The translations under genes and the position numbers were made by a program. DNA of 64,000 nucleotides from Rhizobium rosettiformans (GTDB lineage: Bacteria; Pseudomonadota; Alphaproteobacteria; Rhizobiales; Rhizobiaceae): the NCBI RefSeq assembly GCF_016806065.1, contig NZ_CP032405.1, positions 558,001-622,000 on the forward strand, in the 5' to 3' direction. Positions 4,373 to 26,989 of the stretch are shown in pieces; positions within the stretch are counted from its first letter, which is position 1, and each line of letters opens with the position of its first letter. Under the pieces are notes generated by a model. It ran no database searches, had not been told where the DNA came from, and saw nothing but the letters and a program-made list of their open reading frames with translations.

Positions 4373-4386
4373 CAGACGATCAAAAC

Positions 4387-4427: not shown

Positions 4428-4433
4428 CCTCCC

Positions 4434-5357: not shown

Positions 5358-5368
5358 GAAGCGCGATC

Positions 5369-6733: not shown

Positions 6734-6767
6734 ACCCTGAGGCCGGATGCCCGGCAGGGAGACGCGC

Positions 6768-8852: not shown

Positions 8853-9239
8853 ATGTCGAGGATAATTGCAGCCGCTTGCACCGTCGCAGCCCTTTTGCTG
8901 TCTCAGAATGCTTTCGCGCAAGAAGGAGACGCGGCAGCTGGCGAAGCCGTATTCAAGAAATGCACGGCCTGTCACAACGTCGCCGACGCCAAGCACAAGG
9001 TCGGCCCTTCCCTTCAGGGTGTCGTCGGCCGTCAACCCGGTGTGGCTGAAGGCTTCAGATACTCCAAGGCAATGACGGATTTTGGCGCCGACAAGGTATG
9101 GGACGACGAACAGTTGGCTGCCTACCTCGAGAACCCCCGTGGCGTGGTCAAGGGTACGCGCATGGCCTTCGCCGGTTTGAAGGATCCGAAGGAAATCGCC
9201 GACGTCATCGCGTATATGAAAACCTTCCCGGCCCCCTGA
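8853..9239 (+). CDS. cycA: Soluble cytochrome c2 / class I cytochrome c
   Basis: A 128-residue periplasmic c-type cytochrome. A signal peptide (residues 1-22, cleaved after AFA) precedes the mature protein. The haem site CTACH occupies residues 37-41, and Met104 in VKGTRMAFAGL is the likely sixth ligand. This is the class that carries electrons from the bc1 complex to the photosynthetic reaction centre or to oxidase. GGGAGGA lies upstream of the ATG. Location inside the photosynthesis cluster supports the cytochrome c2 assignment, though a respiratory c550-type role cannot be excluded. Confidence 0.88.
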   Translation: MSRIIAAACTVAALLLSQNAFAQEGDAAAGEAVFKKCTACHNVADAKHKVGPSLQGVVGRQPGVAEGFRYSKAMTDFGADKVWDDEQLAAYLENPRGVVKGTRMAFAGLKDPKEIADVIAYMKTFPAP

Positions 9240-9253
9240 TCGTTGGGGGTTCG

Positions 9254-9281
9254 TTCCGCCGGGATGCCAATTCCGGCGGAA
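9254..9281 (+). terminator. Stem-loop after cycA
   Basis: Perfect 9-base arms TTCCGCCGG (9254-9262) and CCGGCGGAA (9273-9281) with a 10-base loop, 14 bases after the cytochrome stop codon. No T-run follows, so it is either a weak terminator or an mRNA 3'-end stabiliser. Confidence 0.45.
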
Positions 9282-9294
9282 TTCCGCTCAGAAG

Positions 9295-9336
9295 TGTAAA
9301 AAAAAGTTTACATATCGCTCGTCTTCTCCGAATATG
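9295..9336 (+). promoter_or_regulatory. dxs promoter with perfect PpsR-type operator
   Basis: TGTAAAAAAAAGTTTACA (9295-9312) is an exact TGT-N12-ACA box with 6-base symmetric arms TGTAAA/TTTACA. Its right arm TTTACA can act as a -35, with AATATG (9331-9336) 18 bases downstream. It lies about 130 bases before the dxs start and after cycA, so it should control dxs and possibly the downstream PpaA-like gene. Confidence 0.68.
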
Positions 9337-9443
9337 CAGATATTGCACCATTCTCATGCAACCGCTCACCGGATGCGCCAAGCCGGCGCTCGCAGCGACA
9401 GCGGACCCAGGAGAATTGGGCTCTTTCGTGGGAGGAGAGCGCG

Positions 9444-11333: not shown

Positions 11334-11455
11334 GCTAAAACCACAGGACGACATCAGGCGTATTCGACTACGAGAGGTTTGGCGTCGGCGCAAGAATGCA
11401 CTAATATCCCATCGGGATGAGCGGATCTGCCCAAGCCGATGACCGGGAGGGTGAT

Positions 11456-12382
11456 ATGGCGGGTGAAAAGAACGGGGGACCACCCGGCGGGGCGGACGAA
11501 CCTCCGTCCAATAGCGATGGTAAGTCTGTACTATCGAAATCGGATACGCGGCTGACAAGCCTCGAGCAGCGCATTCTCGAAAGCGCGATCCGGGATGCCG
11601 TGCCGCGGCTTGTGGGAGCGAGCCATACGGATCTGGCAGCGGGTCCGCGTGTTAGCGAGATGCCGCCGGAGATCGATTTTCACCTGCATCCCGAACTGGA
11701 TCCGAAGGCGCGCGAATTGCCCGGAACCGAGAAGGCGATCACCTACCGATCCGCGCTCACTGAGGCCCTGGTCCAGGCAGATCCTCGTGGTCACCGGGAA
11801 ATCATCGAGGAATTGCAGCGCACTGACCTGCCCATGCACACGCTCGCGATCCAGCTGTTTTCGCCTGTCGCCGCGCAACTCGGGCGGCTCTGGTGCAATG
11901 ACGAAACCGATTTCATCCAGGTTGCCGTGGCCTCCACCAGACTTGGCATGATCGTCAACCATCTGTCGCAGAACCGCAGCCAGACCATTCGCGATCGCCA
12001 AAAGGCGCGCCGTGTGTTGCTGGCGCGGACCCAGGGTGCCCTGCACACCATCGGCGTATCGATCGTCGCTTCCTGTTTTCGCGACATGGGCTGGGACGTC
12101 GAAGGTGGGGCGGACCTCGAACTCAACGACAGCCTCTACATGCGCCTGTCGAACTCCTCCTACACTCTTTTGGGTATCTCGGTCGGCCGTGTCGACGAAG
12201 TGGATGAATGCGCCGCCGCAATTCGCAGGGTACAGTCCAGGCGCAGCCCGGGTCCGATGAAGATCGCGGTCGGTGGTCCGGCCGTCATGAAGGACCCGCG
12301 CGCCTTCGGCAATATCGGCGCCGATATGGTGGCGAAATCGGCACTTGAAGTCATGCATCTGGCGGACAGGATGGGTGCCTGA
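11456..12382 (+). CDS. Second PpaA/AerR-like cobalamin-binding regulator
   Basis: A 308-residue protein with the same architecture as PpaA. A variable N-terminus is followed by LGRLWCNDETDFIQVAVASTRLGM (equivalent to the W-x-DD-xDFIDVTIATSRL segment of PpaA) and a B12-binding-like domain with GALHTIGVSIVASCFRDMGWDVEGG and MKIAVGGPAVM. The His in LHT matches the cobalamin-contacting His of the family. The ATG with GGGAGG five bases upstream was chosen over one 13 codons earlier with no ribosome site. The first 80 residues are low-complexity and hydrophilic. There is no DNA-binding domain I can identify, so it probably acts through a partner such as PpsR. Confidence 0.82.
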   Translation: MAGEKNGGPPGGADEPPSNSDGKSVLSKSDTRLTSLEQRILESAIRDAVPRLVGASHTDLAAGPRVSEMPPEIDFHLHPELDPKARELPGTEKAITYRSALTEALVQADPRGHREIIEELQRTDLPMHTLAIQLFSPVAAQLGRLWCNDETDFIQVAVASTRLGMIVNHLSQNRSQTIRDRQKARRVLLARTQGALHTIGVSIVASCFRDMGWDVEGGADLELNDSLYMRLSNSSYTLLGISVGRVDEVDECAAAIRRVQSRRSPGPMKIAVGGPAVMKDPRAFGNIGADMVAKSALEVMHLADRMGA

Positions 12383-14273: not shown

Positions 14274-15389
14274 TCACGATGCCTTGGGTGAAAACGGCAG
14301 CGGGAAGCTGACAGCCTGACCCGTTTCCGCGGACTTTTGTGCTGCGAGCCCCATGGCCACCGCCCACCAGCCATCATCGAGCGCAACCTCGACCGGCTGC
14401 GTACCCTTCACCGCCTTCTGGAAACGCTGATGCTGATAGAAGGTCGAGCCGTTGTGGTCACCGGCTTCCAGCAGCTGCGGATCAACCGGAATTTCGACGA
14501 CGTGCGGCCCTTTGGGATCACGCGGCGAGACGATGACCTGAGCAACCGGTGGCTCGCCGAGATGTTCGGGCCAGAAGCGACCGGGGCCGGGCACCAGGCA
14601 CTCGATCTTGCCGGCGGGGCCAACTGCCGAGATTTCCTCCTGATAGCGGGCACCTTCAGCAAACATGCAGAGCTCCAGCATCGCCCGCGCGCCTGAGGCA
14701 AAGTCGACGATCACATAGGCATTGTCCCAGATGTCAGAGCGATTGCCGTCATAGACTTCGTCGACATGATTCACCGACTGCCCGCCAGACGCCATGACGC
14801 GGACCGGATTAGACTTCAGGATATGCCGCATCAGGTCGAAGAAATGGCAGCATTTCTCGACAAGGGTCCCACCTGTGTTGCGATTGAACCGGTTCCAGTC
14901 ACCGACCTTCTCGAGAAACGGAAAACGATGCTCACGGATGGTCAACATACGGATGCCACCGGTGGCCTCGTCAGCCTGTTCGATCATCCGCGCGACCGGC
15001 GGCATGTAGCGGTATTCCATGGCAACCCAGATCGGCGCCGGATAGGCAGCGCGAAGTGCTGCGAGCCGCGGAGCATCGGCAGGATCGGTGAACAGCGGCT
15101 TCTCCACCAGCACCGGCAGCGGCCGGATTGCGGCGATCTTTTCCAACTGCTCGAGATGCAGATAGTTCGGGCTTGCGATCAGCAGGCAGTTCACGGCCTC
15201 TACAGCAAGCAGTTCCTCGATCGAGCCGACCATCTTTGCCGTCGGAACCGCCTCTGCTGACAGCGCACGCATGCCGGCATCCGGCTCATAAATCGCGACC
15301 ACCGATGCATCCTGCAGAAGCGCAATGTTGCGCAGGTGCTCCTGCCCCATCATGCCGCAACCGATGATCCCGTATTGAAGTCCTGCCAC
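14274..15389 (-). CDS. Gfo/Idh/MocA-family NAD(P)-dependent oxidoreductase (possible GH188-type NAD-dependent sulfoquinovosidase)
   Basis: A 371-residue two-domain protein. The N-terminal Rossmann fold has GIIGCGMMGQEHLRNIALL and the family motif VEKPLF near residue 105. The C-terminal alpha/beta domain contains EYRYMPPVARM, REHRFPFLEKVGDWNRFNRNTGGTLVEKCCHFFDLMRH, with the usual catalytic-region HFFD. A GTG start behind GAGGAGG was chosen. It reads together with the adjacent GntR gene and diverges from the sulfonate monooxygenase operon. Known NAD-dependent sulfoquinovosidases (GH188) belong to this superfamily and sit in such operons lacking a GH31 enzyme, so this is a candidate. Substrate is inferred from context only. 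Confidence 0.75.
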   Translation of the reverse strand: MAGLQYGIIGCGMMGQEHLRNIALLQDASVVAIYEPDAGMRALSAEAVPTAKMVGSIEELLAVEAVNCLLIASPNYLHLEQLEKIAAIRPLPVLVEKPLFTDPADAPRLAALRAAYPAPIWVAMEYRYMPPVARMIEQADEATGGIRMLTIREHRFPFLEKVGDWNRFNRNTGGTLVEKCCHFFDLMRHILKSNPVRVMASGGQSVNHVDEVYDGNRSDIWDNAYVIVDFASGARAMLELCMFAEGARYQEEISAVGPAGKIECLVPGPGRFWPEHLGEPPVAQVIVSPRDPKGPHVVEIPVDPQLLEAGDHNGSTFYQHQRFQKAVKGTQPVEVALDDGWWAVAMGLAAQKSAETGQAVSFPLPFSPKAS

Positions 15390-15426
15390 GCTTTCCTCCT
15401 CAATTGAACCGCTCCTCGCGGTCATG

Positions 15427-16128
15427 TCATTTCAGCCGCGATACGTATCGGGCGACGGTGTGATCGAGCCAGGTCCGCGAGACTTCCGCACGGGCTCCCT
15501 CCTGATCCTGGCTGATGCGTTGAATATGTGTGGCGGGCGCGCGCGGCCTCAGACCGAAGCTCGCCGGTGCCCAGTCCGGCACCACGTCGAGACCGATCTG
15601 GTCCTCGGCCCTCGCAATCCAGAGCGACAGCTTGGTGCGATAGAACAGATAGAGGGATTCGGAGACCGCCTCGGGGTCAATCGTCTCGACATAGGAGCCG
15701 TCGAGCCAGATCTCCTCGAGCGCCGCCGGGCGGCCGGAAAGACGCCGCAAGCGCCGGATCCGGTGGGACTCCTCGGATGTGCCGAATGTCGGCAGTCCAT
15801 CCGGTTTCGGCAGTCGGTCGATCGACAGGATCTCTGCCGTCGGCAAGCCGCCGCCGCCCAGCAACTCCAGGCGAAACATGGCATAGACGGATTTCGGATC
15901 GGATATCGCCCGAACATAGTTGCCGGAGCCCTGAATGCGCTCCAGAAGCCCGCGATTTTGCAACTCTGCCAATGCCTTGCGCAGCGTGCCGACGGCAATG
16001 CCGAGTTCTTCGGCCATATCCCGTTCAGGGCGCAGCTTTTCACCATCGATCAGCCGCCCCGCCGCGATATCACGCACCAGAAGCTCGGTGATCTGCACAT
16101 AGATGGGAAGGCTGCCGGGCGGCTGCAT
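15427..16128 (-). CDS. GntR-family (HutC/UTRA) transcriptional regulator of the sulfonate operon
   Basis: A 233-residue regulator with an N-terminal winged helix (PIYVQITELLVRDIAAGRLIDGEKLRPERDMAEELGIAVGTLRKALAELQNRGLLERIQGSGNYV) and a C-terminal UTRA ligand-binding domain. It most likely binds a sugar-like effector and represses the divergent monooxygenase operon. A GTG 16 codons earlier is an alternative start, but it would place translation inside the inverted-repeat promoter region. The role corresponds to SmoD-like regulators of sulfoquinovose monooxygenase clusters; this is inference. Confidence 0.85.
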   Translation of the reverse strand: MQPPGSLPIYVQITELLVRDIAAGRLIDGEKLRPERDMAEELGIAVGTLRKALAELQNRGLLERIQGSGNYVRAISDPKSVYAMFRLELLGGGGLPTAEILSIDRLPKPDGLPTFGTSEESHRIRRLRRLSGRPAALEEIWLDGSYVETIDPEAVSESLYLFYRTKLSLWIARAEDQIGLDVVPDWAPASFGLRPRAPATHIQRISQDQEGARAEVSRTWLDHTVARYVSRLK

Positions 16129-16167
16129 CGTGGAGTTCTGTGGCACTTCGGTATCGCCGAGAAAAAA

Positions 16168-16192
16168 TTGATACACTATTGATCTACATCAA
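16168..16192. promoter_or_regulatory. Candidate operator in the GntR/monooxygenase divergent promoter
   Basis: TTGAT (16168-16172) and ATCAA (16188-16192) form an inverted repeat, with a further TTGAT at 16179-16183 in the middle. It is the only obvious symmetric element between the two divergent genes and is a plausible GntR site. Confidence 0.4.
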
Positions 16193-16239
16193 ATCGGGTG
16201 TTAGGCAAGAGGAAAGTTGGAGCCTTGGAGGAGACCTCA

Positions 16240-17397
16240 ATGACTGTCGTACCTGTCACATCGGCCGATATCGATGGCGCGGAAGTGTCGTGGTTCGCAG
16301 CCCTTTGCTCTGACGATTATCAGTTTCTTGGCGTGCCGGATGGAGCGCTGCGGTCGAGCTTCGAGCACTGCTCGGACATCGTGCAGAAGGCCGAGCAGCT
16401 CGGCTTCCGCAACATTCTCTGCCCGTCTTCTTATCAGGTCGGTCAGGACACGCTGAGCTTTGTTGCCGGCTGTGCGCCGATCACGTCTGACATCAACATG
16501 CTCGCCGCCATCCGCTGCGGCGAGATGCAGCCGATCATGCTGGCGCGGACCGTCGCCACCCTCGACCACATGCTCAAAGGTCGCCTGACACTCAACGTCA
16601 TCAGCTCGGATTTTCCGGGTGAAGTTGCAGACAGTGCCTTCCGCTACAAGCGCAGCCATGAGGTGGTCGAGATCCTCCGCCAGGCTTGGACCCGCGACAC
16701 GATCGATCACGAGGGCGAGGTCTACCAGTTCAAGGGTGTGTCCACCGAACCCGCTCGCCCCTATCAGCAGAACGGCGGCCCCCTTCTTTATTTCGGCGGT
16801 TACTCCCCGGACGCGCTGGAGCTCTGCGGCGCGCAATGCGACGTCTATCTGATGTGGCCCGAAAAAAAGGACCAGCTCGCCGAGCGGATGAAGGCCGTGC
16901 ATGCGCGCGCCGAAGCCCATGCCCGGACCCTCGATTACGGTCTCCGCGTCCACATGATCGTGCGCGACACCGAGAAGGAAGCCCGCGAATACGCCGAATA
17001 CATCGTCTCGAAGCTCGATGACGAATACGGCAAGCTCATCCGCGATCGCGCCCATGACTCGATCTCACTGGGTGTCGCCCATCAGGCCCGTGCCCGCGAA
17101 CTCGCCGACCAGTTCGGCTATATCGAGCCGCATATGTGGACCGGCATCGGTCGCGCCCGCTCCGGCTGTGGTGCGGCCCTTGTCGGCTCGACGGACCAGA
17201 TTCTTTCGGAACTGGAAGCCTACAGAAAGATGGGCATCCGCGCCTTCATCCTGTCCGGTTATCCGCATATCGACGAGGCGGTTCATTTCGGCACCAAGGT
17301 GCTGCCGGAATTGAAAACCGTCTCGCTCCCGCATGCCTATGGCCGCGTTCCCGCGGAAACGCCCGCCACCCCTCTCGGAAATGGAGTTCGCCGCTAA
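16240..17397 (+). CDS. smoC: LLM-class FMNH2-dependent monooxygenase, SmoC-like sulfoquinovose monooxygenase
   Basis: A 385-residue bacterial-luciferase-like TIM-barrel monooxygenase of the SsuD/alkanesulfonate group. Family features include EVSWFAALCSDDYQFLGVPDG, LCPSSYQVGQDTLSFVAGCAPITS, RTVATLDHMLKGRLTLNVISSDFPGE and LYFGGYSPDALELC. These enzymes cleave C-S bonds, releasing sulfite and an aldehyde. The immediate neighbours, an aldo-keto reductase and a flavin reductase, are the exact partners of sulfoquinovose monooxygenase SmoC, which yields 6-oxo-glucose. An alkanesulfonate SsuD role is the alternative. GGAGGAG precedes the ATG. The stop overlaps the next start (TAATG). Confidence 0.82.
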   Translation: MTVVPVTSADIDGAEVSWFAALCSDDYQFLGVPDGALRSSFEHCSDIVQKAEQLGFRNILCPSSYQVGQDTLSFVAGCAPITSDINMLAAIRCGEMQPIMLARTVATLDHMLKGRLTLNVISSDFPGEVADSAFRYKRSHEVVEILRQAWTRDTIDHEGEVYQFKGVSTEPARPYQQNGGPLLYFGGYSPDALELCGAQCDVYLMWPEKKDQLAERMKAVHARAEAHARTLDYGLRVHMIVRDTEKEAREYAEYIVSKLDDEYGKLIRDRAHDSISLGVAHQARARELADQFGYIEPHMWTGIGRARSGCGAALVGSTDQILSELEAYRKMGIRAFILSGYPHIDEAVHFGTKVLPELKTVSLPHAYGRVPAETPATPLGNGVRR

Positions 17398-18290
17398 TGC
17401 AGCGCGTCAATCTTACCCCTGACCTCACCTTCAGCCGCCTCGTTTACGGCATGTGGCGCATCGGCGACGATGCCGACACCTCGCCCAAACATGTCCAGGC
17501 CAAGATCGAGGCCTGCCTTTCCCAGGGCATCACCACCATGGACCAGGCCGACATCTATGGCGGTTATACGGCGGAAGCCGTGCTCGGCAATGCTCTGAAG
17601 GCCTCCCCCGGCCTGCGCGACAAGCTCGAAATCGTCACCAAATGTGACATTGTCGCCCCGGCCGGTCGACATTCGGCAGCCCGCGTCAAACATTATGACA
17701 CGTCGGCCGCTCACATCACCGCCTCGGTCGAAGCCTCGCTGACCGACATGGGCACCGATCATGTCGACCTGCTGCTGATCCACCGCCCCGATCCGCTGAT
17801 CGATCCTGACGAAACAGGCCCTGCTCTCGATGCGCTGGTCACCTCCGGCAAGGTCCGCGCCGTCGGCGTTTCCAACTTCCGGCCCTGGGACTTTTCGCTG
17901 CTTCAGTCGTCGATGGAGAACAATCTCGTCACCAACCAGATCGAGATGAGCCTCCTGGCGACCGATACCTTCGTCAACGGCGACCTCGCTTATCTGCAGG
18001 AGCGCATGGTGTCGCCGATGGCCTGGTCGCCGCTCGGCGGCGGTCGTCTCATGGACGGATCGAAGCCGGAACTTCTGGCTGACCTGAAGCGCATCGGCGC
18101 AGAACACGGCGTCGACGAAACGGCTGTCGCCGTCGCCTGGCTGCTGCGGCATCCCGCTGCCATCCTGCCGGTCATGGGCACCAACTCACTCGAACGTATT
18201 GCGAAGATTGCAGACGCGACGAAGGTGGAGATGGATCGCCAGACATGGTTCGAGCTTTACACGCTTGCGATCGGACGGGAGGTCGCCTGA
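17397..18290 (+). CDS. smoB: Aldo-keto reductase, SmoB-like
   Basis: A 297-residue aldo/keto reductase with the catalytic Asp and Tyr in MDQADIYGGY (about residues 48-57), the catalytic Lys in IVTKCDIV, the His in LLLIHRPDPL, and the cofactor segment VMGTNSLERI. In the sulfoquinovose monooxygenase pathway SmoB reduces 6-oxo-glucose to glucose. It overlaps the monooxygenase stop and the next start by one base each, so the three enzymes are translationally coupled. A YdhF-like oxidoreductase of another role is the generic alternative. Confidence 0.8.
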   Translation: MQRVNLTPDLTFSRLVYGMWRIGDDADTSPKHVQAKIEACLSQGITTMDQADIYGGYTAEAVLGNALKASPGLRDKLEIVTKCDIVAPAGRHSAARVKHYDTSAAHITASVEASLTDMGTDHVDLLLIHRPDPLIDPDETGPALDALVTSGKVRAVGVSNFRPWDFSLLQSSMENNLVTNQIEMSLLATDTFVNGDLAYLQERMVSPMAWSPLGGGRLMDGSKPELLADLKRIGAEHGVDETAVAVAWLLRHPAAILPVMGTNSLERIAKIADATKVEMDRQTWFELYTLAIGREVA

Positions 18291-18808
18291 TGATGGCTGC
18301 CAATGACATTCATGCGTTGGAGGCCGTCTTCGTGCCTGGCGCGGACAATCATCGGGATTTCCGCAATGCGCTGGGCAGTTTCACGACGGGTGTCACCGTG
18401 GTGACGGCGATGACACCGGACGGTCCGATCGGCATGACGGTGAATAGCTTCGCATCCGTTTCGCTCGATCCGCCTCTGGTGCTCTGGTCGCCCGCCAAGA
18501 GTTCATCGCGATATGTCGCCTTCACGGGCGCCCGGCATTTCGCGATCCACGTGCTCGGCGCGGATCAGGATCACCTGAGCGCCGCCTTCACCCGCGGCGG
18601 CAGCGGCTTCGACGGGATCGAGGTCAGGTTCAACGACGAAGGCGTTCCGGTTTTGCCCGGCACGCTGGCACGTTTCGAATGCACCGAGCAGGCGCAGCAC
18701 GACGCCGGTGATCACACGATCATCATCGGCAAGGTGTTAAGGGTTGCACATCGGCAGGGAGAACCGCTGTGCTTCTCAGGGGGACGGTTCGGACGCTTCG
18801 CCGTCTGA
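18290..18808 (+). CDS. smoA: Flavin reductase family protein, SmoA-like
   Basis: A 172-residue flavin reductase-like split-barrel protein: FRNALGSFTTGVTVVTAMTPDGPIGMTVNSFASVSLDPPLVLWSPAKSSS is the family core, and CFSGGRFGRF its C-terminal motif. It would supply FMNH2 from NAD(P)H to the monooxygenase two genes upstream. It starts one base inside the preceding gene with GGGAGG seven bases upstream. Gene content and order agree with the SmoABC set. The 193 bases after it, up to the TRAP genes, show no further gene. Confidence 0.85.
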   Translation: MMAANDIHALEAVFVPGADNHRDFRNALGSFTTGVTVVTAMTPDGPIGMTVNSFASVSLDPPLVLWSPAKSSSRYVAFTGARHFAIHVLGADQDHLSAAFTRGGSGFDGIEVRFNDEGVPVLPGTLARFECTEQAQHDAGDHTIIIGKVLRVAHRQGEPLCFSGGRFGRFAV

Positions 18809-19001
18809 GTTGAGTTTGGGAGGAGGTCGTCGGCGGCACTTTGGACATGCCGCGGCGAACGGTCAAAGACGATCAGCAACAGGTATGCGAGGAGAAATTT
18901 ACCTCTCCTCGTACGGAAACTGGAACAGCCGTGTTTGCGCGGCGGGAACAAGTCTTCGATATTTGCGCCGAATTGACCGATGACAAGAAACGGGTGGAGA
19001 C

Positions 19002-19592
19002 ATGACGGCACTTTCGAACCTGACCAATCTGCTCGGCCGGCTGAATGCCGCGGTGCTGACGGTCGGATTGTGGCTTGGGGCCGGCGCGCTCGGCATCATG
19101 CTCGTGTTCATCCTCGTTCAGGTCTTCTTTCGCTATGTTCTCGGCAATGCGCTGCCGTGGAGTGAGGAAGGGTCCCGTTTCCTAATGCTATGGATGACGG
19201 GCTTGATGGTGCCGACGGCATTCCGCCAGGGCGGCTTTGTCGCCATCACGATGATCCTCGACATCTTTCCGCGCCTGATCGGCGGCATCATCAACCTGCT
19301 TTTCCTCGTCCTGACTGCAGTCCTTCTTTACGTCGCCATGCGCATCGGCTGGGCAGAAGTGACAGGGCTCGGCGGACGGTTTGCCATGCCGGCAATTGCG
19401 GTGCCGACGTCTCTTGACCTCAGCACCTGGATGAAGGTGCCGCGTGGCTGGATGATGGCATCGCTTGCGACGGGTGTGACCATGATGTTCGTGGTCAGCA
19501 TCGAACTGATCCTGCGCAACCTGATCGAACTGACGGGACATCAGCAAAAACTCGAGCCGGTCGCCTCGCTCGCAGGACTGGGAGCCGAGTGA
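19002..19592 (+). CDS. dctQ: TRAP transporter small permease subunit
   Basis: A 196-residue DctQ-family membrane protein with four hydrophobic helices and the conserved VFFRYVLGNALPWSEEGSRFLMLWMTGLMVPTAFRQGG segment. It joins DctM in the inner membrane to form the secondary transporter. It overlaps dctM by ATGA. Its position directly after the sulfonate enzymes suggests import of their substrate. Confidence 0.92.
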   Translation: MTALSNLTNLLGRLNAAVLTVGLWLGAGALGIMLVFILVQVFFRYVLGNALPWSEEGSRFLMLWMTGLMVPTAFRQGGFVAITMILDIFPRLIGGIINLLFLVLTAVLLYVAMRIGWAEVTGLGGRFAMPAIAVPTSLDLSTWMKVPRGWMMASLATGVTMMFVVSIELILRNLIELTGHQQKLEPVASLAGLGAE

Positions 19593-20881
19593 TGCTGAGC
19601 CTCTTCCTCCCCCTTTTCATGATCCTTCTGCTGCTCGGCTTCCCGATCGTGTTCGGCCTGATCGCAGCACCCGCCATTCTCCTCTGGCTGAACGGCCAGG
19701 AGCGCGACATCGTGCTCCTCTATCGCAATGTCTATAACGGGATGGACAGCTTCCCGCTGATGGCGATCCCCTTCTTCATGCTGGCCGGGGAACTGATGAA
19801 CCGGGCCGGCATCACCATGCGCCTCGTAGAGTTCGCCCAGGCGGTGATCGGCCATCTGCGCGGAGGCCTCGCGCACGTCAACATTCTGTCCTCGATGCTG
19901 TTTGCCGGCCTCTCAGGCTCGGCCGTGGCGGACGTCTCCGCCCTTGGCTCGATGCTGATCCCGGCAATGGAAAAGCAGGGCTACAGCCGTAAATTTGCGA
20001 CCGCCGTTACGGCCGCATCCTCGATCATCGGCCCGATCATCCCACCATCAGGCATCATGATCATTTATGCCTATGTCATGGGCGAAAGCGTGGCTGCGCT
20101 TTTCCTGGCTGGCATCGTTCCGGGCGTCCTGATCGGTCTGAGCCTCATGGCGATCGTCTACCTGCTTGCCGATCGCGAGAACCTGCCGGCGGCAACCACC
20201 CGCGCAACCTGGTCCGAACGTGGGCGTGCAAGCCTCAATGCCTTCTGGCCGCTAATGACCCCAGTCATCATCATGGGTGGCATTCTCGGCGGCATCTTCA
20301 CGCCAACGGAAGCCTCCGCCATTGCTGTCGGCTACGCAATCTTTATCGGCCTCTTCGTGCTGCGCAGTCTGAAAGTCGGCGACATGCCGAGAATTCTGAT
20401 GCGCGCCGCCATGACCTCCGCAGTCGTCCTGCTGCTCGTAGGCGCGGCCATGGCCTTCAAGACGGTCGCCAGCCTGTCGCATACGCCCGAACTCCTGGCG
20501 TCGATTATCCTGAGCCTCAGCGAAAATCCGCTGGTCCTGCTGCTGCTGATCAACCTGCTGCTCTTCGTGGTCGGCATGTTCCTCGATGCAGGGCCGGCAA
20601 TCATCATTCTCGGCCCGATCCTTGGCCCGATCTTCACCCAGATGGGTGTGGATTCCGTCCACTTCGCCATCATCATGGCGGTCAACCTGACGGTTGGCCT
20701 TCTGACCCCACCGATGGGCCTGGTACTCTTCGTCTCGTCGTCCGTCTCCGGCCTCAAGGTCGAGACGATCGCCAAGGCCACACTGCCGTTCTTGGCGGCG
20801 GAAATCGTCGTGATCTTTCTGATCACCTATTTCCCCGCTTTGACGCTCACGCTCCCGCGCCTTGCGGGCTTCGTCGACTAA
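19589..20881 (+). CDS. dctM: TRAP transporter large permease subunit
   Basis: A 430-residue DctM-family protein with about 12 membrane segments. Motifs include FPLMAIPFFMLAGELMNRAGITMRLVEFAQAVIGHLRGGLAHVNI, SGSAVADVSALGSMLIPAM, IGPIIPPSGIMIIY and LTPPMGLVLF. It forms the sodium-coupled channel fed by the DctP binding protein encoded next. Confidence 0.95.
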   Translation: MMLSLFLPLFMILLLLGFPIVFGLIAAPAILLWLNGQERDIVLLYRNVYNGMDSFPLMAIPFFMLAGELMNRAGITMRLVEFAQAVIGHLRGGLAHVNILSSMLFAGLSGSAVADVSALGSMLIPAMEKQGYSRKFATAVTAASSIIGPIIPPSGIMIIYAYVMGESVAALFLAGIVPGVLIGLSLMAIVYLLADRENLPAATTRATWSERGRASLNAFWPLMTPVIIMGGILGGIFTPTEASAIAVGYAIFIGLFVLRSLKVGDMPRILMRAAMTSAVVLLLVGAAMAFKTVASLSHTPELLASIILSLSENPLVLLLLINLLLFVVGMFLDAGPAIIILGPILGPIFTQMGVDSVHFAIIMAVNLTVGLLTPPMGLVLFVSSSVSGLKVETIAKATLPFLAAEIVVIFLITYFPALTLTLPRLAGFVD

Positions 20882-20904
20882 CTTGAGAAAAGGGAGGAAC
20901 CAGA

Positions 20905-21960
20905 ATGCTCAAGTCCATGTTGAAAACCTTGGCTTTGGCTAGCGCGCTCACCATCACCGGTGTTGCGCAGGCAGCAGACATCACGCTGCGCGCCACAGCC
21001 AACTCCAACGAAAACGATGAGGACTATGATGGTCTTGTCGTCTTCAAGAACTATGTCGAAAACGCCTCGAACGGCGCGATCGCGGTCGAGCTCTTCATCG
21101 GCACCCAGCTCTGCGCCACCGGCGAGGAATGCCTGCAAGGCGTTGCCGACGGCTCGATCGACATTTACATTTCGACCTCAGGCGGCGCCGCCGGTCTCTT
21201 CCCGTACATCCAGGTCCTCGACCTGCCCTACCTGATGAGCGACGACCGCGTGGCAGAGACCGTGCTGACCGGCGACTTCACGCGCAAGCTGCGCGAGAAG
21301 GCCTTGGCAGACAGCGACAACAAGATCCGCCTGATGACCATCGGCAACACCGGCGGCTGGCGCAACTACGCCAACACCAAGCAGACGGTGAAGTCGCCCG
21401 ATGATCTGAAAGGTCTGAAGATGCGCACCGTACCGGCCGATCTGCCGCAGCAGGTAGCGACCGCCGTGGGAGCAGCCCCGACCCCGATCCCGTGGCCGGA
21501 ACTTTTCACTTCGCTGCAGACGGGCGTCGTGGAAGGTACCGCCAACGGCATCACCGACATCATGTCGATGAAGTTTCCGGATGCCGGCCTCAAATACCTG
21601 ACGCTCGATGGCCACAGCTACATGGGCGCCTTCTGGTGGATGTCGAATGACCGCTTCACCGGCCTGACACCGGAGCAGAAACAGGTCGTCGTCGATGGCT
21701 TTGCCGCCCTCCAGCAGGCGACCTTCGCCTCGCCGAAGCGCAAGGAAATCGCAGCCTATCAGGACTTCGCTAAGGCCGGCGGTGAGATCTACGTGCCGAC
21801 GGCCGAGGAGAAGGAAGCCTTCAAGGCGGCCGTCTCGCCCGTCTTCGACTGGTTCAAGGCCAATGTCACCGGCGGCGCCGAAGTGTTCGACCAGTTCACG
21901 GCAGCGGTCGCCGACGCCCAGACAAAGGTTGACGCCGAGCGCGCAGCGGATCTGAACTGA
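20905..21960 (+). CDS. dctP: TRAP transporter substrate-binding protein
   Basis: A 351-residue periplasmic DctP-family protein with a signal peptide ending VAQAAD at about residue 26. Motifs include GEECLQGVADGSIDIYISTSGGAAGLFPYIQVLDLPYLM, the Arg-containing GLKMRTVPADLPQQVATAVGAAPTPIPWPELFTSLQTGVVEGTANGI typical of TRAP ligand carboxylate contacts, and SYMGAFWWMSNDRF. A sulfonate or sulfo-sugar ligand is inferred from the operon. GGGAGGA precedes the ATG. Confidence 0.93.
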   Translation: MLKSMLKTLALASALTITGVAQAADITLRATANSNENDEDYDGLVVFKNYVENASNGAIAVELFIGTQLCATGEECLQGVADGSIDIYISTSGGAAGLFPYIQVLDLPYLMSDDRVAETVLTGDFTRKLREKALADSDNKIRLMTIGNTGGWRNYANTKQTVKSPDDLKGLKMRTVPADLPQQVATAVGAAPTPIPWPELFTSLQTGVVEGTANGITDIMSMKFPDAGLKYLTLDGHSYMGAFWWMSNDRFTGLTPEQKQVVVDGFAALQQATFASPKRKEIAAYQDFAKAGGEIYVPTAEEKEAFKAAVSPVFDWFKANVTGGAEVFDQFTAAVADAQTKVDAERAADLN

Positions 21961-21968
21961 CGACATTA

Positions 21969-22001
21969 GGGATGCGCGGTATGCCGCGCATCCCTTCATT
22001 T
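21969..22001 (+). terminator. Terminator-like hairpin after dctP
   Basis: Perfect 11-base arms GGGATGCGCGG (21969-21979) and CCGCGCATCCC (21984-21994), a 4-base loop, and a T-rich tail TTCATTT. It lies nine bases after the dctP stop. Confidence 0.65.
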
Positions 22002-22057
22002 CGCCCTCCGCATCATCCGATGCCACCATGCACAGGGCGCTCTACCAGAGGTGATCC

Positions 22058-23104
22058 ATGCCAGAACCGTCGACCGCCTCGCCCGATCCGGAACGAGACC
22101 GCCACTCTGCGACTTTGAGCGAGCGATGGCAGAAGCTTTTCCCTGGCCTCTCCGTGACCGTGTTGATCGCTCTCGCATCCGCCTTCCTGTCTGAACATTA
22201 CGGCGCACCGGCCATGCTGCTGGCGATCCTGATCGGGCTGGCCTTGCACTTCCTTGCAGAAGACCCGAAGACGGCTGCCGGCTTGGACTTCGCTTCACGC
22301 ACGGTGCTGCGGCTTGGCATCGCGCTGCTCGGCCTGAGAGTCAGTGTCGCCATGTTTGCCGAGCTGGGTGCGGCCGTGATCGCCATGATCGTCGGTGCAG
22401 TCCTGCTCACCATCCTCTTCGGCATCCTCGCCTCGCGCCTTACTGGCCAGGGTACCCAGTTCGGCGTACTCACCGGCGGCGCGGTCGCCATCTGCGGCGC
22501 CTCGGCAGCCCTTGCGATCTCCGCCACCCTTGGAAACCGCAGCAAGGAAGCCGACCAGCAGATGGTCTTCACCGTCATCGGTGTGACCATGCTGTCCACG
22601 CTCGCCATGATCTTCTACCCGATCCTCGCAAGTCTCGCAGGGTTGGACGATCACCAGACCGGCATCTTCCTCGGCGCGACAATCCATGATGTCGCTCAGG
22701 TCGCAGGCGCAGGTTTCTCGGTCTCCGTGCCCGCAGGCGAAACCGCCGTCTTCGTCAAGCTCATCCGCGTGACCATGCTGGCGCCGGTAGTCCTCGTGGC
22801 AGCACTCGCCTTTAGAAGCACGATTTCCGGCGATGTGAAGCGCCCGCCGCTGCTGCCGAGCTTCGTGGTCGCCTTCCTGTTGCTGGCGGCACTGAATTCG
22901 CTTGTGACTATCCCCACCGTGGTGGCCGATTGGGCAGGCATTGTCTCGCGCTGGGCCCTCCTCGTCGCCATTGCTGCCGTCGGCGTAAAGACCTCGCTGC
23001 CGGAAGTCTTCAAGATCGGCGGACGCGCGATTGGCGTTCTGGTCGCCGATACCGCCTTCCTTGCACTGATCGTACTCGCAGTCCTCGTTTTTGTTGGACT
23101 GTGA
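22058..23104 (+). CDS. YeiH/UPF0324-family putative sulfate/sulfite exporter
   Basis: A 348-residue membrane protein with about 10 hydrophobic segments. Family motifs are LRLGIALLGLRVS, FGVLTGGAVAICGASAALAISA, and GIFLGATIHDVAQVAGAGFSVS. Members are annotated as putative sulfate exporters and are often found beside sulfonate-degrading genes, where they may export the sulfite or sulfate released by desulfonation. That fits here, since it follows the desulfonating monooxygenase and TRAP genes. A hairpin separates it from dctP, so it may be transcribed partly on its own. Confidence 0.85.
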   Translation: MPEPSTASPDPERDRHSATLSERWQKLFPGLSVTVLIALASAFLSEHYGAPAMLLAILIGLALHFLAEDPKTAAGLDFASRTVLRLGIALLGLRVSVAMFAELGAAVIAMIVGAVLLTILFGILASRLTGQGTQFGVLTGGAVAICGASAALAISATLGNRSKEADQQMVFTVIGVTMLSTLAMIFYPILASLAGLDDHQTGIFLGATIHDVAQVAGAGFSVSVPAGETAVFVKLIRVTMLAPVVLVAALAFRSTISGDVKRPPLLPSFVVAFLLLAALNSLVTIPTVVADWAGIVSRWALLVAIAAVGVKTSLPEVFKIGGRAIGVLVADTAFLALIVLAVLVFVGL

Positions 23105-23189: not shown

Positions 23190-23849
23190 ATGGCCAAGAC
23201 AACCAAGAAAGCGACGAGCACTCCGAAGCCGGCGCTGTCGCAGGATCCCCATGCCGTGCGCGAGCCCCGCGCCAACAATCTCGAAATGGCGATTGGCCAT
23301 GAGGTCCGCACCTATCGCAAGAAACTGGGCATAACGGTCGCCGATCTCGCCGCGGCCACCGGCATGTCGGTCGGCATGCTCTCGAAGATCGAGAACGGCA
23401 ATATCTCGCCTTCGCTGACCACGCTTCAGGCGCTGTCGAAGGCGCTGGGCATGCCGATCACAGCCTTCTTCAAGGGCTTCGAGGAGCCGAAGTCGGCGAG
23501 CTTCGTCAAGGCAGGCGAAGGCGTGAACTTGGAGCGCCGTGGAACCCGGGCCGGCCATCACTACAGCCTGCTAGGCCACATCGAAAACAACACCTCCGGC
23601 GTCGTCGTCGAGCCCTATCTGATCACACTGAACGCCGAGTCCGACATATTCCCGACATTCCAGCATGAGGGCATGGAATTTCTCTACATGCTGGAGGGCG
23701 AAGTAGTCTATCGCCATGGGGACAGCCTCTACCGGATGCAAGCTGGCGATAGTCTCTTCTTTGACGCCGATGCACCACATGGCCCTGAAGAACTCGTAAG
23801 CCTGCCCGCACGATACATCTCGATCATCTCCTATCCCCAACGTCGATAG
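23190..23849 (+). CDS. XRE-family transcriptional regulator with C-terminal cupin domain
   Basis: A 219-residue regulator. A basic N-terminal tail is followed by a helix-turn-helix (EVRTYRKKLGITVADLAAATGMSVGMLSKIENGNISPSLTTLQALSKAL, residues about 38-87). A double-stranded beta-helix cupin (about 145-210) contains HEGMEFLYMLEGEVVYRHG and GDSLFFDADAPHGP. Such regulators sense small metabolites. It directly precedes and is codirectional with glxBCD-glnT, and a long inverted repeat sits between them. GAGGAGG precedes the ATG. Confidence 0.92.
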   Translation: MAKTTKKATSTPKPALSQDPHAVREPRANNLEMAIGHEVRTYRKKLGITVADLAAATGMSVGMLSKIENGNISPSLTTLQALSKALGMPITAFFKGFEEPKSASFVKAGEGVNLERRGTRAGHHYSLLGHIENNTSGVVVEPYLITLNAESDIFPTFQHEGMEFLYMLEGEVVYRHGDSLYRMQAGDSLFFDADAPHGPEELVSLPARYISIISYPQRR

Positions 23850-23856
23850 TTGCCCA

Positions 23857-23893
23857 CCAAGAAAACTTTATTCCTTTTGATTGATTTTCTTGG
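23857..23893. promoter_or_regulatory. Inverted repeat in the glxB promoter region
   Basis: Perfect 9-base arms CCAAGAAAA (23857-23865) and TTTTCTTGG (23885-23893) are separated by 19 AT-rich bases. They lie between the XRE regulator and glxB, in the most AT-rich patch nearby, so an operator/promoter for the glx genes is likely. Confidence 0.5.
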
Positions 23894-23938
23894 ATGCCGC
23901 TGCTAGCCCTTTCTCCAGAGACATTGGAGGGCGTGGCC

Positions 23939-24844
23939 ATGTGCGGAATTGTCGGTCTGTTTCTCAAGGACAAGGCGCTGGAGCCCCGGCTCGGCGATCT
24001 TCTCTCCGACATGCTGATCACCATGACCGACCGAGGACCGGACTCGGCCGGCATCGCCATCTATGGCGGCGTCGACGGCAAGACCGCCAAGGTCACCATC
24101 CAGTCGGCCGACCCGGAAAGTGATTTTACAGGTCTCGCGGAAGATCTGGCCAAAGCAGGCATAGACTCCGAAATCGAATTGAAGAGTACCCATGCGGTCA
24201 TCTCGATCGCTGCGAGCAAGCTGCCCGAGATCCGGGCAGCCCTTGCCGAAATCCGCCCCAATGTCCGCATCATGGGCTCCGGGGAAAGCGTCGAAATCTT
24301 CAAGGAAGTCGGTCTTCCCAAGGACGTCGTCCAGCGCTTCGGCGTCCGCGCCATGGGCGGCACCCACGGTATCGGCCATACCCGCATGGCGACCGAGAGC
24401 GCAGTCACCACGCTCGGCGCTCACCCCTTTTCGACAGGTGCCGACCAGTGCCTCGTGCACAATGGCTCGCTGTCAAACCACAACAACCTGCGCCGTGAAC
24501 TCATCCGCGAAGGCATGGCCTTCGAGACCCAGAACGACTCGGAAGTCGCCGCCGCCTATCTCACGGCGGAAATGGCCAAGGGCAAGGATCTGGGGCAAGC
24601 GCTGACCGGCGCGCTCGACGATCTCGACGGATTCTTCACCTTCGTCGTCGGGACCAAGACCGGCTTCGGCGTGGTGCGCGACCCGATCGCCTGCAAGCCC
24701 GCCGTCATGGCCGAGACAGACCAGTATGTCGCCTTCGGCTCCGAATACCGCGCGCTGGTCAACCTGCCCGGTATCGAGACCGCCCGGGTCTGGGAGCCGG
24801 AGCCGGCGACCGTCTACTTCTGGGACCACGAAAAGGCCGCCTGA
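23939..24844 (+). CDS. glxB: Class II glutamine amidotransferase, GlxB/MgsA-like
   Basis: A 301-residue Ntn-type glutaminase. The mature nucleophile is Cys2 of MCGIVGLF. Other motifs are DRGPDSAGIAIYG, GHTRMATESAVTTLGAHPFS and HNGSLSNHNNLRRELIREG. It would release ammonia from glutamine for the neighbouring synthase subunits. Rhizobial glxB and the A subunit of N-methylglutamate synthase have this form. GGAGGG precedes the ATG, which was chosen because the Cys must follow Met directly. Confidence 0.9.
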   Translation: MCGIVGLFLKDKALEPRLGDLLSDMLITMTDRGPDSAGIAIYGGVDGKTAKVTIQSADPESDFTGLAEDLAKAGIDSEIELKSTHAVISIAASKLPEIRAALAEIRPNVRIMGSGESVEIFKEVGLPKDVVQRFGVRAMGGTHGIGHTRMATESAVTTLGAHPFSTGADQCLVHNGSLSNHNNLRRELIREGMAFETQNDSEVAAAYLTAEMAKGKDLGQALTGALDDLDGFFTFVVGTKTGFGVVRDPIACKPAVMAETDQYVAFGSEYRALVNLPGIETARVWEPEPATVYFWDHEKAA

Positions 24845-24873
24845 AACCTCTCCCTTTCGAGAAAGCTTGCCGA

Positions 24874-25560
24874 ATGCCCGTCTTCGACCTCTCCCACACC
24901 CCGCTTCGTGAGCTCAACAGCGCGCTGCACACACTCGGCGCCGGCTCGAACGACGCCCTCTTCGAAGTGGTCAATCCACGCGGTCACCACGCGGTCGCCG
25001 TCGGCATCGATGCACCCGTCACCGTCGAGGTGAAGGGATCGGTCGGCTATTACTGCGCTGGCATGAATGATGGCGGCACAGTCACCATCCATGGTTCTGC
25101 CGGTCCCGGTGTGGCCGAAAACATGATGTCCGGCACGGTGGTGATCGAGGGCGACGCATCGCAATATGCCGGCGCCACCGGTCGAGGCGGCCTGCTCGTC
25201 ATCAAGGGCAATGCCGCCTCCCGCTGCGGCATCTCGATGAAGGGCATCGACATCGTCGTGCACGGCTCGATCGGCCACATGTCGGCCTTTATGGGCCAGT
25301 CCGGCCACCTCGTCGTCTGCGGCGACGCGGGCGAAGCTTTGGGCGACAGCATTTACGAAGCGAAGCTCTTCGTGCGCGGCTCGGTGAAGAGCCTCGGCGC
25401 CGATTGCATCGAAAAGGAGATGCGCCCGGAACACCTCGAAAAGCTGGCCGAACTGCTGGCCAAGGCCGGCGTGACGCATGCCAAGCCCGAGGAGTTCAAG
25501 CGCTACGGCTCGGCCCGCAAGCTCTACAATTTCAACATCGACAATGCCGATGCGTATTGA
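24874..25560 (+). CDS. glxC: Glutamate synthase GXGXG-domain protein, GlxC/MgsB-like
   Basis: A 228-residue single-domain protein equal to the C-terminal beta-helix (GXGXG) domain of glutamate synthase large subunit. Repeated Gly turns are visible in GSVGYYCAGMNDGGTVTIHGSAGPGVAENMMSG and QYAGATGRGGLLVIKGNAASRCG. It is the structural middle piece of the split glutamate/N-methylglutamate synthase encoded by glxBCD (mgsABC). Confidence 0.9.
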   Translation: MPVFDLSHTPLRELNSALHTLGAGSNDALFEVVNPRGHHAVAVGIDAPVTVEVKGSVGYYCAGMNDGGTVTIHGSAGPGVAENMMSGTVVIEGDASQYAGATGRGGLLVIKGNAASRCGISMKGIDIVVHGSIGHMSAFMGQSGHLVVCGDAGEALGDSIYEAKLFVRGSVKSLGADCIEKEMRPEHLEKLAELLAKAGVTHAKPEEFKRYGSARKLYNFNIDNADAY

Positions 25561-25575
25561 GGCGAGGAAAAGCTG

Positions 25576-26904
25576 ATGAGCTACCACAACCCGTTTACCC
25601 CGCCGCGCAAGTCTGCCACCTTCGATGACCATACGCTCGCTGAAATCCGTCGAGCAGCAGCCACCGGCATCTACGATATCAGAGGCGGCGGCACGAAGCG
25701 CAAGGTGCCGCATTTCGACGACCTGCTCTTCCTCGGCGCCTCGATCTCCCGCTATCCACTCGAAGGCTATCGCGAGAAATGCGACACTTCGGTGGTCCTC
25801 GGCACGCGTTTTGCCAAGAAGCCGATCGAGCTGAAGATCCCGATCACCATCGCCGGCATGAGCTTCGGCGCCCTCTCGGGCAATGCCAAGGAAGCGCTCG
25901 GGCGCGGCGCGACGCTGGCAGGCACCTCGACCACGACGGGCGACGGCGGCATGACCGATGAGGAACGCGGCCATTCGGAAAAGCTGGTCTATCAGTACCT
26001 CCCCTCTCGTTACGGCATGAACCCCAGGGATCTGCGCCGCGCCGATGCGATCGAGATCGTGGTCGGTCAGGGCGCAAAGCCCGGCGGCGGCGGCATGCTG
26101 CTCGGCCAGAAGATCTCCGACCGCGTCGCCCAGATGCGCAACCTGCCGATGGGCATCGACCAGCGCTCCGCCTGCCGCCACCCCGACTGGACCGGCCCCG
26201 ATGATCTCGAGATCAAGATCCTCGAACTGCGCGAAATTACTGACTGGGAAAAGCCGATCTACGTGAAAGTCGGCGGCGCCCGTCCCTATTATGACACCGC
26301 TCTTGCCGTGAAGGCCGGCGCCGATGTCGTCGTGCTCGACGGCATGCAGGGTGGAACGGCGGCCACCCAGGACGTGTTCATCGAGAATGTGGGCATGCCG
26401 ACGCTCGCCTGCATCCGTCCCGCCGTCCAGGCCCTGCAGGACCTCGGCATGCATCGCAAGGTGCAGCTGGTGATCTCGGGCGGCATCCGCTCGGGAGCCG
26501 ATGTGGCCAAAGCTCTGGCGCTCGGCGCCGACGTCGTCTCGATCGGCACGGCAGCCCTCGTTGCCATCGGCGATAATGATCCGAAATGGGAAGAGGAATA
26601 CCAGAAGCTTGGCACCACAGCCGGGGCCTATGACGACTGGCACGAGGGCAAGGACCCCGCCGGCATCACCACGCAGGATCCCGAGCTTGCCGCCCGCCTC
26701 GACCCGGTCGCCGCCGGTCGCAGGCTCGCCAACTATCTCAAGGTCATGACGCTGGAGGCGCAGACCATTGCCCGCGCCTGCGGCAAGAACAAGCTCACCA
26801 ACCTGGAGCCGGAAGATCTCTGCGCACTAACGATGGAGGCCGCCGCCATGGCGCAGGTGCCTCTTGCCGGCACCAGCTGGTATCCCGGCAAGGGAGGTTT
26901 CTAA
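25576..26904 (+). CDS. glxD: FMN-binding glutamate synthase-domain protein, GlxD/MgsC-like
   Basis: A 442-residue protein matching the FMN/Fe-S synthase domain of glutamate synthase. Motifs are ITIAGMSFGALSGNAKEALGRGATLAGTSTTTGDGG, VGQGAKPGGGGMLLGQKIS, YVKVGGARPYYDTALAVKAGADVVVLDGMQGGTAATQDVFIENVG and VISGGIRSGADVAKALALGADVVSIGTAAL. It would condense ammonia or methylamine with 2-oxoglutarate. Spacing to glxC is 15 bases, so glxBCD form one transcript ending at the terminator that follows. Confidence 0.92.
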   Translation: MSYHNPFTPPRKSATFDDHTLAEIRRAAATGIYDIRGGGTKRKVPHFDDLLFLGASISRYPLEGYREKCDTSVVLGTRFAKKPIELKIPITIAGMSFGALSGNAKEALGRGATLAGTSTTTGDGGMTDEERGHSEKLVYQYLPSRYGMNPRDLRRADAIEIVVGQGAKPGGGGMLLGQKISDRVAQMRNLPMGIDQRSACRHPDWTGPDDLEIKILELREITDWEKPIYVKVGGARPYYDTALAVKAGADVVVLDGMQGGTAATQDVFIENVGMPTLACIRPAVQALQDLGMHRKVQLVISGGIRSGADVAKALALGADVVSIGTAALVAIGDNDPKWEEEYQKLGTTAGAYDDWHEGKDPAGITTQDPELAARLDPVAAGRRLANYLKVMTLEAQTIARACGKNKLTNLEPEDLCALTMEAAAMAQVPLAGTSWYPGKGGF

Positions 26905-26910
26905 CGTTAA

Positions 26911-26950
26911 AATGGCCGCATCTGATCCCACGGATGCGGCCATTCTTTTT
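26911..26950 (+). terminator. Rho-independent terminator after glxD
   Basis: Perfect 12-base arms AATGGCCGCATC (26911-26922) and GATGCGGCCATT (26933-26944), a 10-base loop, and CTTTTT directly after. It starts seven bases after the glxD stop and should set glnT expression apart from glxBCD. Confidence 0.85.
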
Positions 26951-26989
26951 CAACACATGTGTCTCAATCCATAAAAACAGGGGAACGAC

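What the first reader, a model, noticed from the sequence alone, without database searches (positions are those of the whole stretch)
14274..23104. Oxidative sulfonate-sugar operon with a TRAP transporter in place of the usual ABC importer
The ordered, overlapping trio of LLM monooxygenase, aldo-keto reductase and flavin reductase matches the SmoC-SmoB-SmoA enzymes of oxidative sulfoquinovose degradation. Here it is joined to a GntR/UTRA regulator, a Gfo/Idh/MocA protein, a complete DctQMP TRAP transporter and a YeiH-family exporter. The Agrobacterium system uses an ABC importer and a GH31 sulfoquinovosidase, neither of which is here. If right, this is a variant with sodium-driven uptake, a built-in sulfite/sulfate exit and a different glycosidase step.
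Basis: partly seen in the sequence, partly recalled or inferred. Interest (0 to 1): 0.75.

Follow-up and report, generated by a model that had tools for sequence, protein, structure and literature searches.

The report
Sulfolipid-sugar operon with TRAP importer
This bacterium carries a gene set to take up and oxidise the sulfur-containing sugar of plant membrane lipids, a known pathway, but with an import pump of a different type from the one in the best-studied example.

Summary
The LLM protein is SmoC (797 bits, gapless, to PDB 7olf against 199 to SsuD), followed by SmoB and SmoA: a sulfo-SMO locus. What was missed: the Gfo/Idh/MocA protein is the glycosidase, a GH188 NAD+-dependent sulfoquinovosidase with nine of nine checked residues conserved. 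GH188 replacing GH31 in sulfo-SMO clusters is published (PMC10755693). In the 80 closest SmoC loci GH188 is in 44, GH31 in 34, both in 0; the TRAP trio is in 23, none with GH31 or SmoF. No SmoI-like GH31 or close SmoF was found in the own genome. New support for the TRAP: DctP homologues of at least 65% identity, sought without regard to SmoC, lie in sulfo-SMO (11) or sulfoglycolysis-like (7) clusters in 18 of 21 contexts read. So DctQMP is very probably a sulfosugar importer shared by several pathways; ligand and ion are untested. Searches of the held library found no paper linking a TRAP to SQ uptake, but key papers were not held. New variant of a known kind.

The parts
14277..15425 (-). GH188 NAD+-dependent sulfoquinovosidase (SqgA-like; Gfo/Idh/MocA fold), no evident signal peptide by eye
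   Evidence: PDB 8zn9 547 bits, 8qc3 389, 8qc2 385, next 56; 192 of 365 aligned residues identical to 8qc2, and K109, Y138, E165, R167, L171, K173, E190, H194, H324 all present
15430..16176 (-). GntR/UTRA regulator (true start probably the ATG at about 16128)
   Evidence: PF00392 + PF07702; a homologue lies beside smoC in 79 of the 80 loci, all but L059
16167..16188 (+). probable operator ATTGATACACTATTGATCTACA in the divergent gntR-smoC promoter
   Evidence: recognisable in 34 of 35 aligned SMO upstream regions, window included, with mismatches in some; only match with up to 3 mismatches in the whole genome and in the window
16240..17394 (+). SmoC, FMNH2-dependent sulfoquinovose monooxygenase
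   Evidence: 7olf 797 bits and 7oh2 783 bits over 384 residues; SsuD 1nqk 199 bits
17391..18287 (+). SmoB, aldo-keto reductase (6-oxo-glucose to glucose)
   Evidence: 7bbz 533 bits, 7bby 531 bits; next best 242 bits
18290..18805 (+). SmoA, flavin reductase
   Evidence: PF01613; best PDB match 4xhy 183 bits
19002..19589 (+). DctQ, TRAP small membrane subunit
   Evidence: PF04290 72.6 bits
19589..20878 (+). DctM, TRAP large membrane subunit
   Evidence: PF06808 399 bits; TIGR00786 above cut-off
20905..21957 (+). DctP, TRAP solute-binding protein of a family that tracks sulfosugar gene clusters
   Evidence: PF03480 194 bits; contexts of homologues; model pLDDT 88.8 with the TRAP SBP fold
22058..23101 (+). 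PF03601 (Cons_hypoth698 / YeiH-like) membrane protein, candidate sulfite/sulfate exporter
   Evidence: PF03601 211 bits; TIGR00698 below cut-off; homologue in 16 of 80 SmoC loci

Best explanation
A complete sulfo-SMO (oxidative sulfoquinovose) utilisation locus of the GH188 + TRAP type. Proposed working: sulfoquinovosyl glycerol (SQGro) and/or sulfoquinovose (SQ) is caught in the periplasm by DctP and carried in by DctQM, driven by an ion gradient (inferred). In the cytoplasm the GH188 enzyme frees SQ from SQGro by transient NAD+ oxidation at C3. SmoC, fed FMNH2 by SmoA, uses O2 to split the C-S bond to sulfite and 6-oxo-glucose; SmoB reduces that to glucose. The PF03601 protein probably exports sulfite or sulfate. 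The divergent GntR/UTRA protein controls both arms from one operator (16167-16188; inferred). Shown here: family membership of SmoC, SmoB and GH188 and conserved GH188 residues, the lack of a close ABC/GH31 alternative in the genome, the conserved element upstream of smoC, and the association of this DctP family with sulfosugar clusters. Inferred: the substrate of DctP, the ion, the substrate and direction of the exporter, and a common transcript.
For: SmoC, SmoB and GH188 matches to solved structures; active-site residues. 80-locus survey: GH188 44, GH31 34, both 0, neither 2 (L008, L045, both at contig edges); TRAP trio 23, of which 22 with GH188 and 1 (L008) on a contig cut before that gene, 0 with GH31, 0 with SmoF; SmoF 25, of which 24 with GH31 and 1 with GH188. 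No match to SmoI and only a 29% identical SmoF relative in the own genome. DctP-centred search: in 297 genomes of the order, full-length DctP of 65% identity or more in 6 of the 15 genomes with SmoC of 72% or more, and in 7 others, plus one partial hit; 10 further genomes besides the own among 385 of the class. 21 of these 23 contexts were read: 11 with SmoC (661 bits or more) and GH188, 7 with a FucI-like isomerase and a PfkB kinase and/or PF01791 aldolase (3 of these with GH188), 3 with neither. GH188 residues are intact in all 13 further GH188 proteins aligned, four of them from loci without SmoC. Element upstream of smoC conserved and unique in the genome.
Against: Nothing here measures ligand binding. 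The closest solved DctPs are at most 29% identical and bind varied ligands. The TRAP-GH188 link is not shown to be independent of descent: only 2 pairs on well-supported branches, sign test p = 1. The 3 loci L083, L085, L124 carry this DctP without any recognised SQ gene (L124 ends with its contig). Four of the 7 sulfoglycolysis-like loci have no clear sulfoquinovosidase in the stretch read. smoA-dctQ is a 193-base gap, so a separate transcript is possible. 21 of 44 GH188 loci have neither this TRAP nor SmoF by my thresholds, so other importers also serve.
Confidence: 0.85

Rival explanations
1. The sulfo-SMO locus is real, but the TRAP transporter and PF03601 protein form a neighbouring unit for another substrate (a C4 acid, sugar acid or short sulfonate such as isethionate).
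For: 193-base gap with a predicted stem-loop before dctQ; nearest solved SBPs include isethionate, sugar-acid and sialic-acid binders; three homologous TRAPs without recognised SQ genes.
Against: The gap is only 23-54 bases in six relatives (L017, L023, L049, L064, L069, L072), taking my frame starts; 18 of 21 contexts of this DctP are sulfo-SMO or sulfoglycolysis-like; no close relative of the known SQ importer's binding protein in the genome.
Confidence: 0.1
2. The locus serves a related sulfosugar or sulfoglycoside rather than SQ/SQGro itself.
For: Substrate is inferred from homology only; sulfofucose catabolism is reported in a Paracoccus (PMC12421959, start of abstract in the search listing).
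Against: SmoC, SmoB and GH188 are nearest to enzymes of the SQ pathway, and the GH188 residues that hold SQ are present.
Confidence: 0.06
3. A sulfur-scavenging (SsuD-type) alkanesulfonate operon misread as SMO.
For: LLM monooxygenase + flavin reductase is also the SsuDE plan (PMC9594981 passages).
Against: SmoC structures score four times SsuD; SmoB and GH188 lie beside it.
Confidence: 0.02

Closest known systems
Sulfo-SMO (sulfo-ASMO) pathway of Agrobacterium tumefaciens (SmoA-SmoI)
   Same: SmoC, SmoB, SmoA, divergent GntR/UTRA regulator, shared upstream element
   Different: No SmoI-type GH31 and no SmoEFGH ABC importer; GH188 and DctQMP instead; PF03601 protein added
GH188-bearing sulfo-SMO clusters, as in Roseobacter-clade bacteria (Kaur 2023)
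   Same: GH188 in place of GH31 beside SmoC; relatives fetched here, Rhodobacteraceae records among them, also have this TRAP
   Different: The word 'transport' does not occur in that paper's main text. The window lacks the MauG-like gene found in 8 of the 10 sulfo-SMO loci (but in only 2 of the 23 TRAP loci of the 80-locus set)
IseP isethionate TRAP transporter (PDB 8t9t, 8te9)
   Same: TRAP SBP fold, sulfonate ligand class (Foldseek rank 2)
   Different: 26% identity; C2 sulfonate, not a sulfosugar
Sulfo-EMP-like clusters with FucI-like isomerase, PfkB kinase, PF01791 aldolase
   Same: 7 of the 21 contexts share this DctQMP family; 3 have GH188; L081 also has a PF03601 gene
   Different: Sulfoglycolytic-type enzymes instead of SmoABC

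Membership tests
Sulfo-SMO pathway | SmoC and SmoB encoded together (criterion of PMC13372026 for sulfo-SMO-positive genomes; SmoA is listed as a further enzyme; passages) | tested here: met
   adjacent at 16240-18805
Sulfo-SMO pathway | Monooxygenase nearer to SmoC than to SsuD | tested here: met
   797 against 199 bits. That 7olf, 7oh2, 7bby and 7bbz are SmoC and SmoB structures is recalled; the depositors' names differ
Sulfo-SMO pathway | SQ oxidised to sulfite and glucose | not testable with these tools
   needs enzyme assay
GH188 sulfoquinovosidase | Catalytic/ligand residues K107, Y136, E189, H193, H321 and sulfonate triad R166, L170, K172 (ArSqgA numbering) | tested here: met
   All present. 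The paper's Glu163 falls on a Val of 8qc2 in my numbering; the Glu at 164 is conserved
GH31 sulfoquinovosidase (SmoI/YihQ type) | SmoI-like GH31 in locus or genome | tested here: not met
   No match to SmoI in own genome (no positive control in that call); only a 30.7-bit PF01055 hit elsewhere
SmoEFGH ABC importer | SmoF-like binding protein | tested here: not met
   Best own-genome match 29% identity, 80.6 bits, against 449-924 bits in the 25 loci counted as SmoF
TRAP transporter (DctQMP) | DctQ, DctM and DctP all present | tested here: met
   Pfam, all above cut-off; DctP model has the TRAP SBP fold
Sulfosugar-specific TRAP SBP | Binds SQ or SQGro | not testable with these tools
   Only genomic association
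YeiH-type sulfate exporter (TIGR00698) | Score above curated cut-off | tested here: not met
   126.4 against 232.6 bits; Pfam PF03601 is met

The most novel reading that the evidence does not exclude
DctQMP here belongs to a dedicated sulfosugar TRAP family of Alphaproteobacteria, not yet described as such, that serves both C-S-cleaving (sulfo-SMO) and C-C-cleaving (isomerase/kinase/aldolase) clusters, often with a MauG-like di-haem protein near dctP, and that takes up SQGro whole for the cytoplasmic GH188 enzyme.
Probability: 0.5. Interest if true: 0.55.

Novelty: new variant of a known kind. Interest (0 to 1): 0.42.

Why it matters
[quoted passage not shown] If this DctP family binds SQ or SQGro, it gives a marker for sulfosugar uptake that does not depend on the catabolic route, would let uptake be read from metagenomes, and explains how bacteria without the ABC importer feed the cytoplasmic GH188 enzyme.

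Tried and rejected
Tree of DctP with other DctPs of the own genome as outgroup: some outgroup rows were probably wrong frames (L100, L103, L105 flagged for letter make-up) and branches very long, so I use only the inner pattern (sulfo-SMO and sulfoglycolysis-type DctPs intermixed). Test of TRAP-GH188 linkage independent of descent: too few pairs, no significance; fewest changes on the SmoC tree were 3 for the glycosidase and 9 for the importer. Rfam scan of the window: nothing at gathering thresholds. smoA-dctQ gap fold: z -1.09, 24 of 200 shuffles as stable, not significant. Ligand from fold: Foldseek and VIA-align give TRAP SBPs of many ligands, not informative. PF03404 (Mo-co_dimer, sulfite oxidase type) in own genome: none, so the fate of sulfite stays open. 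A recalled sulfoquinovosidase motif searched in GH31 proteins gave nothing usable, not even in SmoI; dropped. Literature: searches found no paper in the held library that ties a TRAP transporter to SQ uptake; hits of 15, 16, 33 and 34 were judged from the listing alone, the two by passages and are unrelated. Sharma 2022 and Liu 2023, the primary sulfo-SMO papers, are not held, and Ma 2025 was not looked up, so a prior report of the TRAP cannot be excluded.

Rows dropped before counts: DctP hits G115 (not fetched), G267 (partial frame) and G487 (3.2 kb contig) have no context read. Of 17 places at 38-52% identity only 6 contexts were read (L087-L091, L127); they are not in the 18 of 21. The 80 loci are the best 80 of at least 582 SmoC relatives. 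The operator alignment used 35 of 81 upstream regions, picked by me for spread. In one search some SmoB/SmoA frames are not printed because overlapping frames were left out; loci are classed by SmoC and GH188.
Full report
Observation. smoC-smoB-smoA overlap or touch; gntR and the Gfo/Idh/MocA gene run divergently. The window lies at C1:558001-622000 of a 5.14 Mb genome, 99.99% complete. The nearest SmoC loci are from Rhizobiaceae such as Agrobacterium albertimagni AOL15 and Rhizobium sp. RU33A.

Enzymes. The LLM protein matches 7olf and 7oh2 with 797 and 783 bits over 384 residues, SsuD with 199. The aldo-keto reductase matches 7bbz/7bby with 533/531 bits, next best 242. That these entries are the SmoC and SmoB structures of the Agrobacterium pathway paper is recalled; independent support is that Agrobacterium loci with the ABC-GH31 cluster carry SmoC at 87-89% identity to the window's. 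The Gfo/Idh/MocA protein matches 8zn9 (547 bits) and 8qc3/8qc2 (389/385 bits), the next being 56 bits. 8QC2 is named as a GH188 structure in PMC11465081 (part 1 of 2 read). PMC10755693 (parts 1-2 of 4 read) states that GH188 occurs in sulfo-SMO clusters lacking GH31 and is near-universal in the Roseobacter ones.

Modularity. In the 80 best SmoC loci (each with up to 10 kb on either side), scored by homology to window and Agrobacterium (L021) proteins at fixed bit thresholds: GH188 44, GH31 34, both 0, neither 2 (L008, L045, both contig edges). Full DctQMP 23: 22 with GH188, 1 (L008) cut before it. SmoF-type ABC 25: 24 with GH31, 1 (L077) with GH188. TRAP with GH31 0, TRAP with SmoF 0. PF03601 gene 16. 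The remaining 32 have neither this TRAP nor SmoF by these thresholds (21 with GH188, 10 with GH31, 1 with neither); several show other ABC parts. On the SmoC tree the glycosidase type needs at least 3 changes and the importer 9, so the importer seems to turn over faster. The TRAP-GH188 pairing itself is not shown to be independent of descent (same call: 2 pairs, p = 1).

Is the TRAP the SQ importer? In the own genome there is no match to SmoI and no close SmoF (29%, 80.6 bits). I then searched with DctP alone. Among 297 genomes of the order, SmoC at 72% identity or more is in 15 (a 16th hit is 50%) and full-length DctP at 65% or more in 13: 6 of the 15 with SmoC and 7 of the rest, plus one partial hit. 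Among 385 genomes of the class there are 10 more besides the own. Neighbourhoods were read for 21 of these 23: 11 with SmoC and GH188 (G000, G116, G051, G271, G237, G286, G566, G507, G449, G624, G546); 7 with a FucI-like isomerase and a PfkB kinase and/or PF01791 aldolase (G093, G040, G145, G080, G318, G516, G412), of which 3 (G093, G516, G412) also have GH188; 3 with neither (G029, G205, G603). Four of the seven lack a clear SQase in the stretch read; GH31 proteins in three of them score only 136-139 bits to SmoI. At about 50% identity, 4 of 6 contexts read (L088, L090, L091, L127) carry SQ-type genes and 2 (L087, L089) do not; 11 further places of that kind were not read. The GH188 residues are intact in all 13 further GH188 proteins aligned, including L081, L091, L122 and L123 from loci without SmoC. 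L081 adds a mutarotase, an aldehyde dehydrogenase, a PF04295/PF20629 protein (the family of sulfolactate lyase SuyAB according to PMC9594981) and a PF03601 gene. A transporter that stays while the catabolic enzymes change is best explained by a common substrate, SQ or SQGro. The GH188 protein shows no signal peptide by eye, so SQGro would have to be imported whole (inference).

Regulation. A 22-base element, ATTGATACANYATTGATYTACA, is recognisable upstream of smoC in 34 of 35 aligned loci irrespective of importer (absent in L067, with mismatches in for example L070, L076, L077, L079 and L080) and occurs once in the own genome at up to 3 mismatches. The TRAP genes have no copy of their own, so they are either read through from smoCBA or controlled otherwise. 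The smoA-dctQ gap is 193 bases in the window and 23-54 in six relatives, taking my frame starts.

Structure. The DctP model (pLDDT 88.8) is a TRAP SBP; high-ranking solved chains include the isethionate protein IseP and the sugar-acid protein DctPAm, at 25-27% identity. This does not decide the ligand.

Known or new. Sulfo-SMO and GH188-SMO are known. I found no paper in the held library that describes a TRAP transporter for SQ (word searches in the main texts of PMC9594981, PMC13372026, PMC12890257 and PMC10755693 gave no TRAP hit). The primary sulfo-SMO papers (Sharma 2022; Liu 2023) are not held, so priority is open. I rate it a new variant of a known kind, moderately interesting mainly for the cross-pathway transporter family.

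Noticed in passing
window 2909-12379: A photosynthesis gene cluster lies directly left of the sulfo-SMO locus: PpsR, BchG, PucC, BchP, Dxs, B12-binding protein. A Dxs homologue precedes the locus on the same strand in 8 of the 80 SmoC loci, all close relatives. The organism is probably an aerobic anoxygenic phototroph.
   Followed up: partly
L081 9993-11723, L083 5076-6806, L085 14049-15404, L093 6349-8112, L095 12904-14823, L118-L126, L128: A MauG-like di-haem protein (PF03150; two CXXCH motifs in each of three checked; TIGR03981 below cut-off in the two scanned) lies next to or near dctP in 15 of the 26 loci, in sulfo-SMO and sulfoglycolysis-like clusters alike, with short fragments in 2 more; but in only 2 of 23 TRAP loci of the 80-locus set (L079, L080). 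Its role is unknown.
   Followed up: partly
L083 and L085: Two loci pair this TRAP family with an AraC regulator, a PhyH-type dioxygenase and the MauG-like gene but no known SQ gene; possibly another oxidative sulfonate route.
   Followed up: no
L022, L024, L026, L028, L032, L035-L037, L039: GH188 sulfo-SMO loci with a different ABC transporter (SmoE-like ATPase 356-369 bits, no SmoF-like SBP), so at least a third importer type is likely.
   Followed up: no
window 18886-18913: Predicted stem-loop in the smoA-dctQ gap; a similar GGAGGA..TCC hairpin seems to recur in L001-L011 with altered stems. The whole gap does not fold better than shuffles, and covariation was not tested.
   Followed up: no
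window 23190-28294: HTH-cupin regulator followed by glutamine amidotransferase-, GXGXG- and glutamate synthase-like genes (names recalled from the translations) and a type III glutamine synthetase, resembling an N-methylglutamate (methylamine) operon; that reading is recalled.
   Followed up: no
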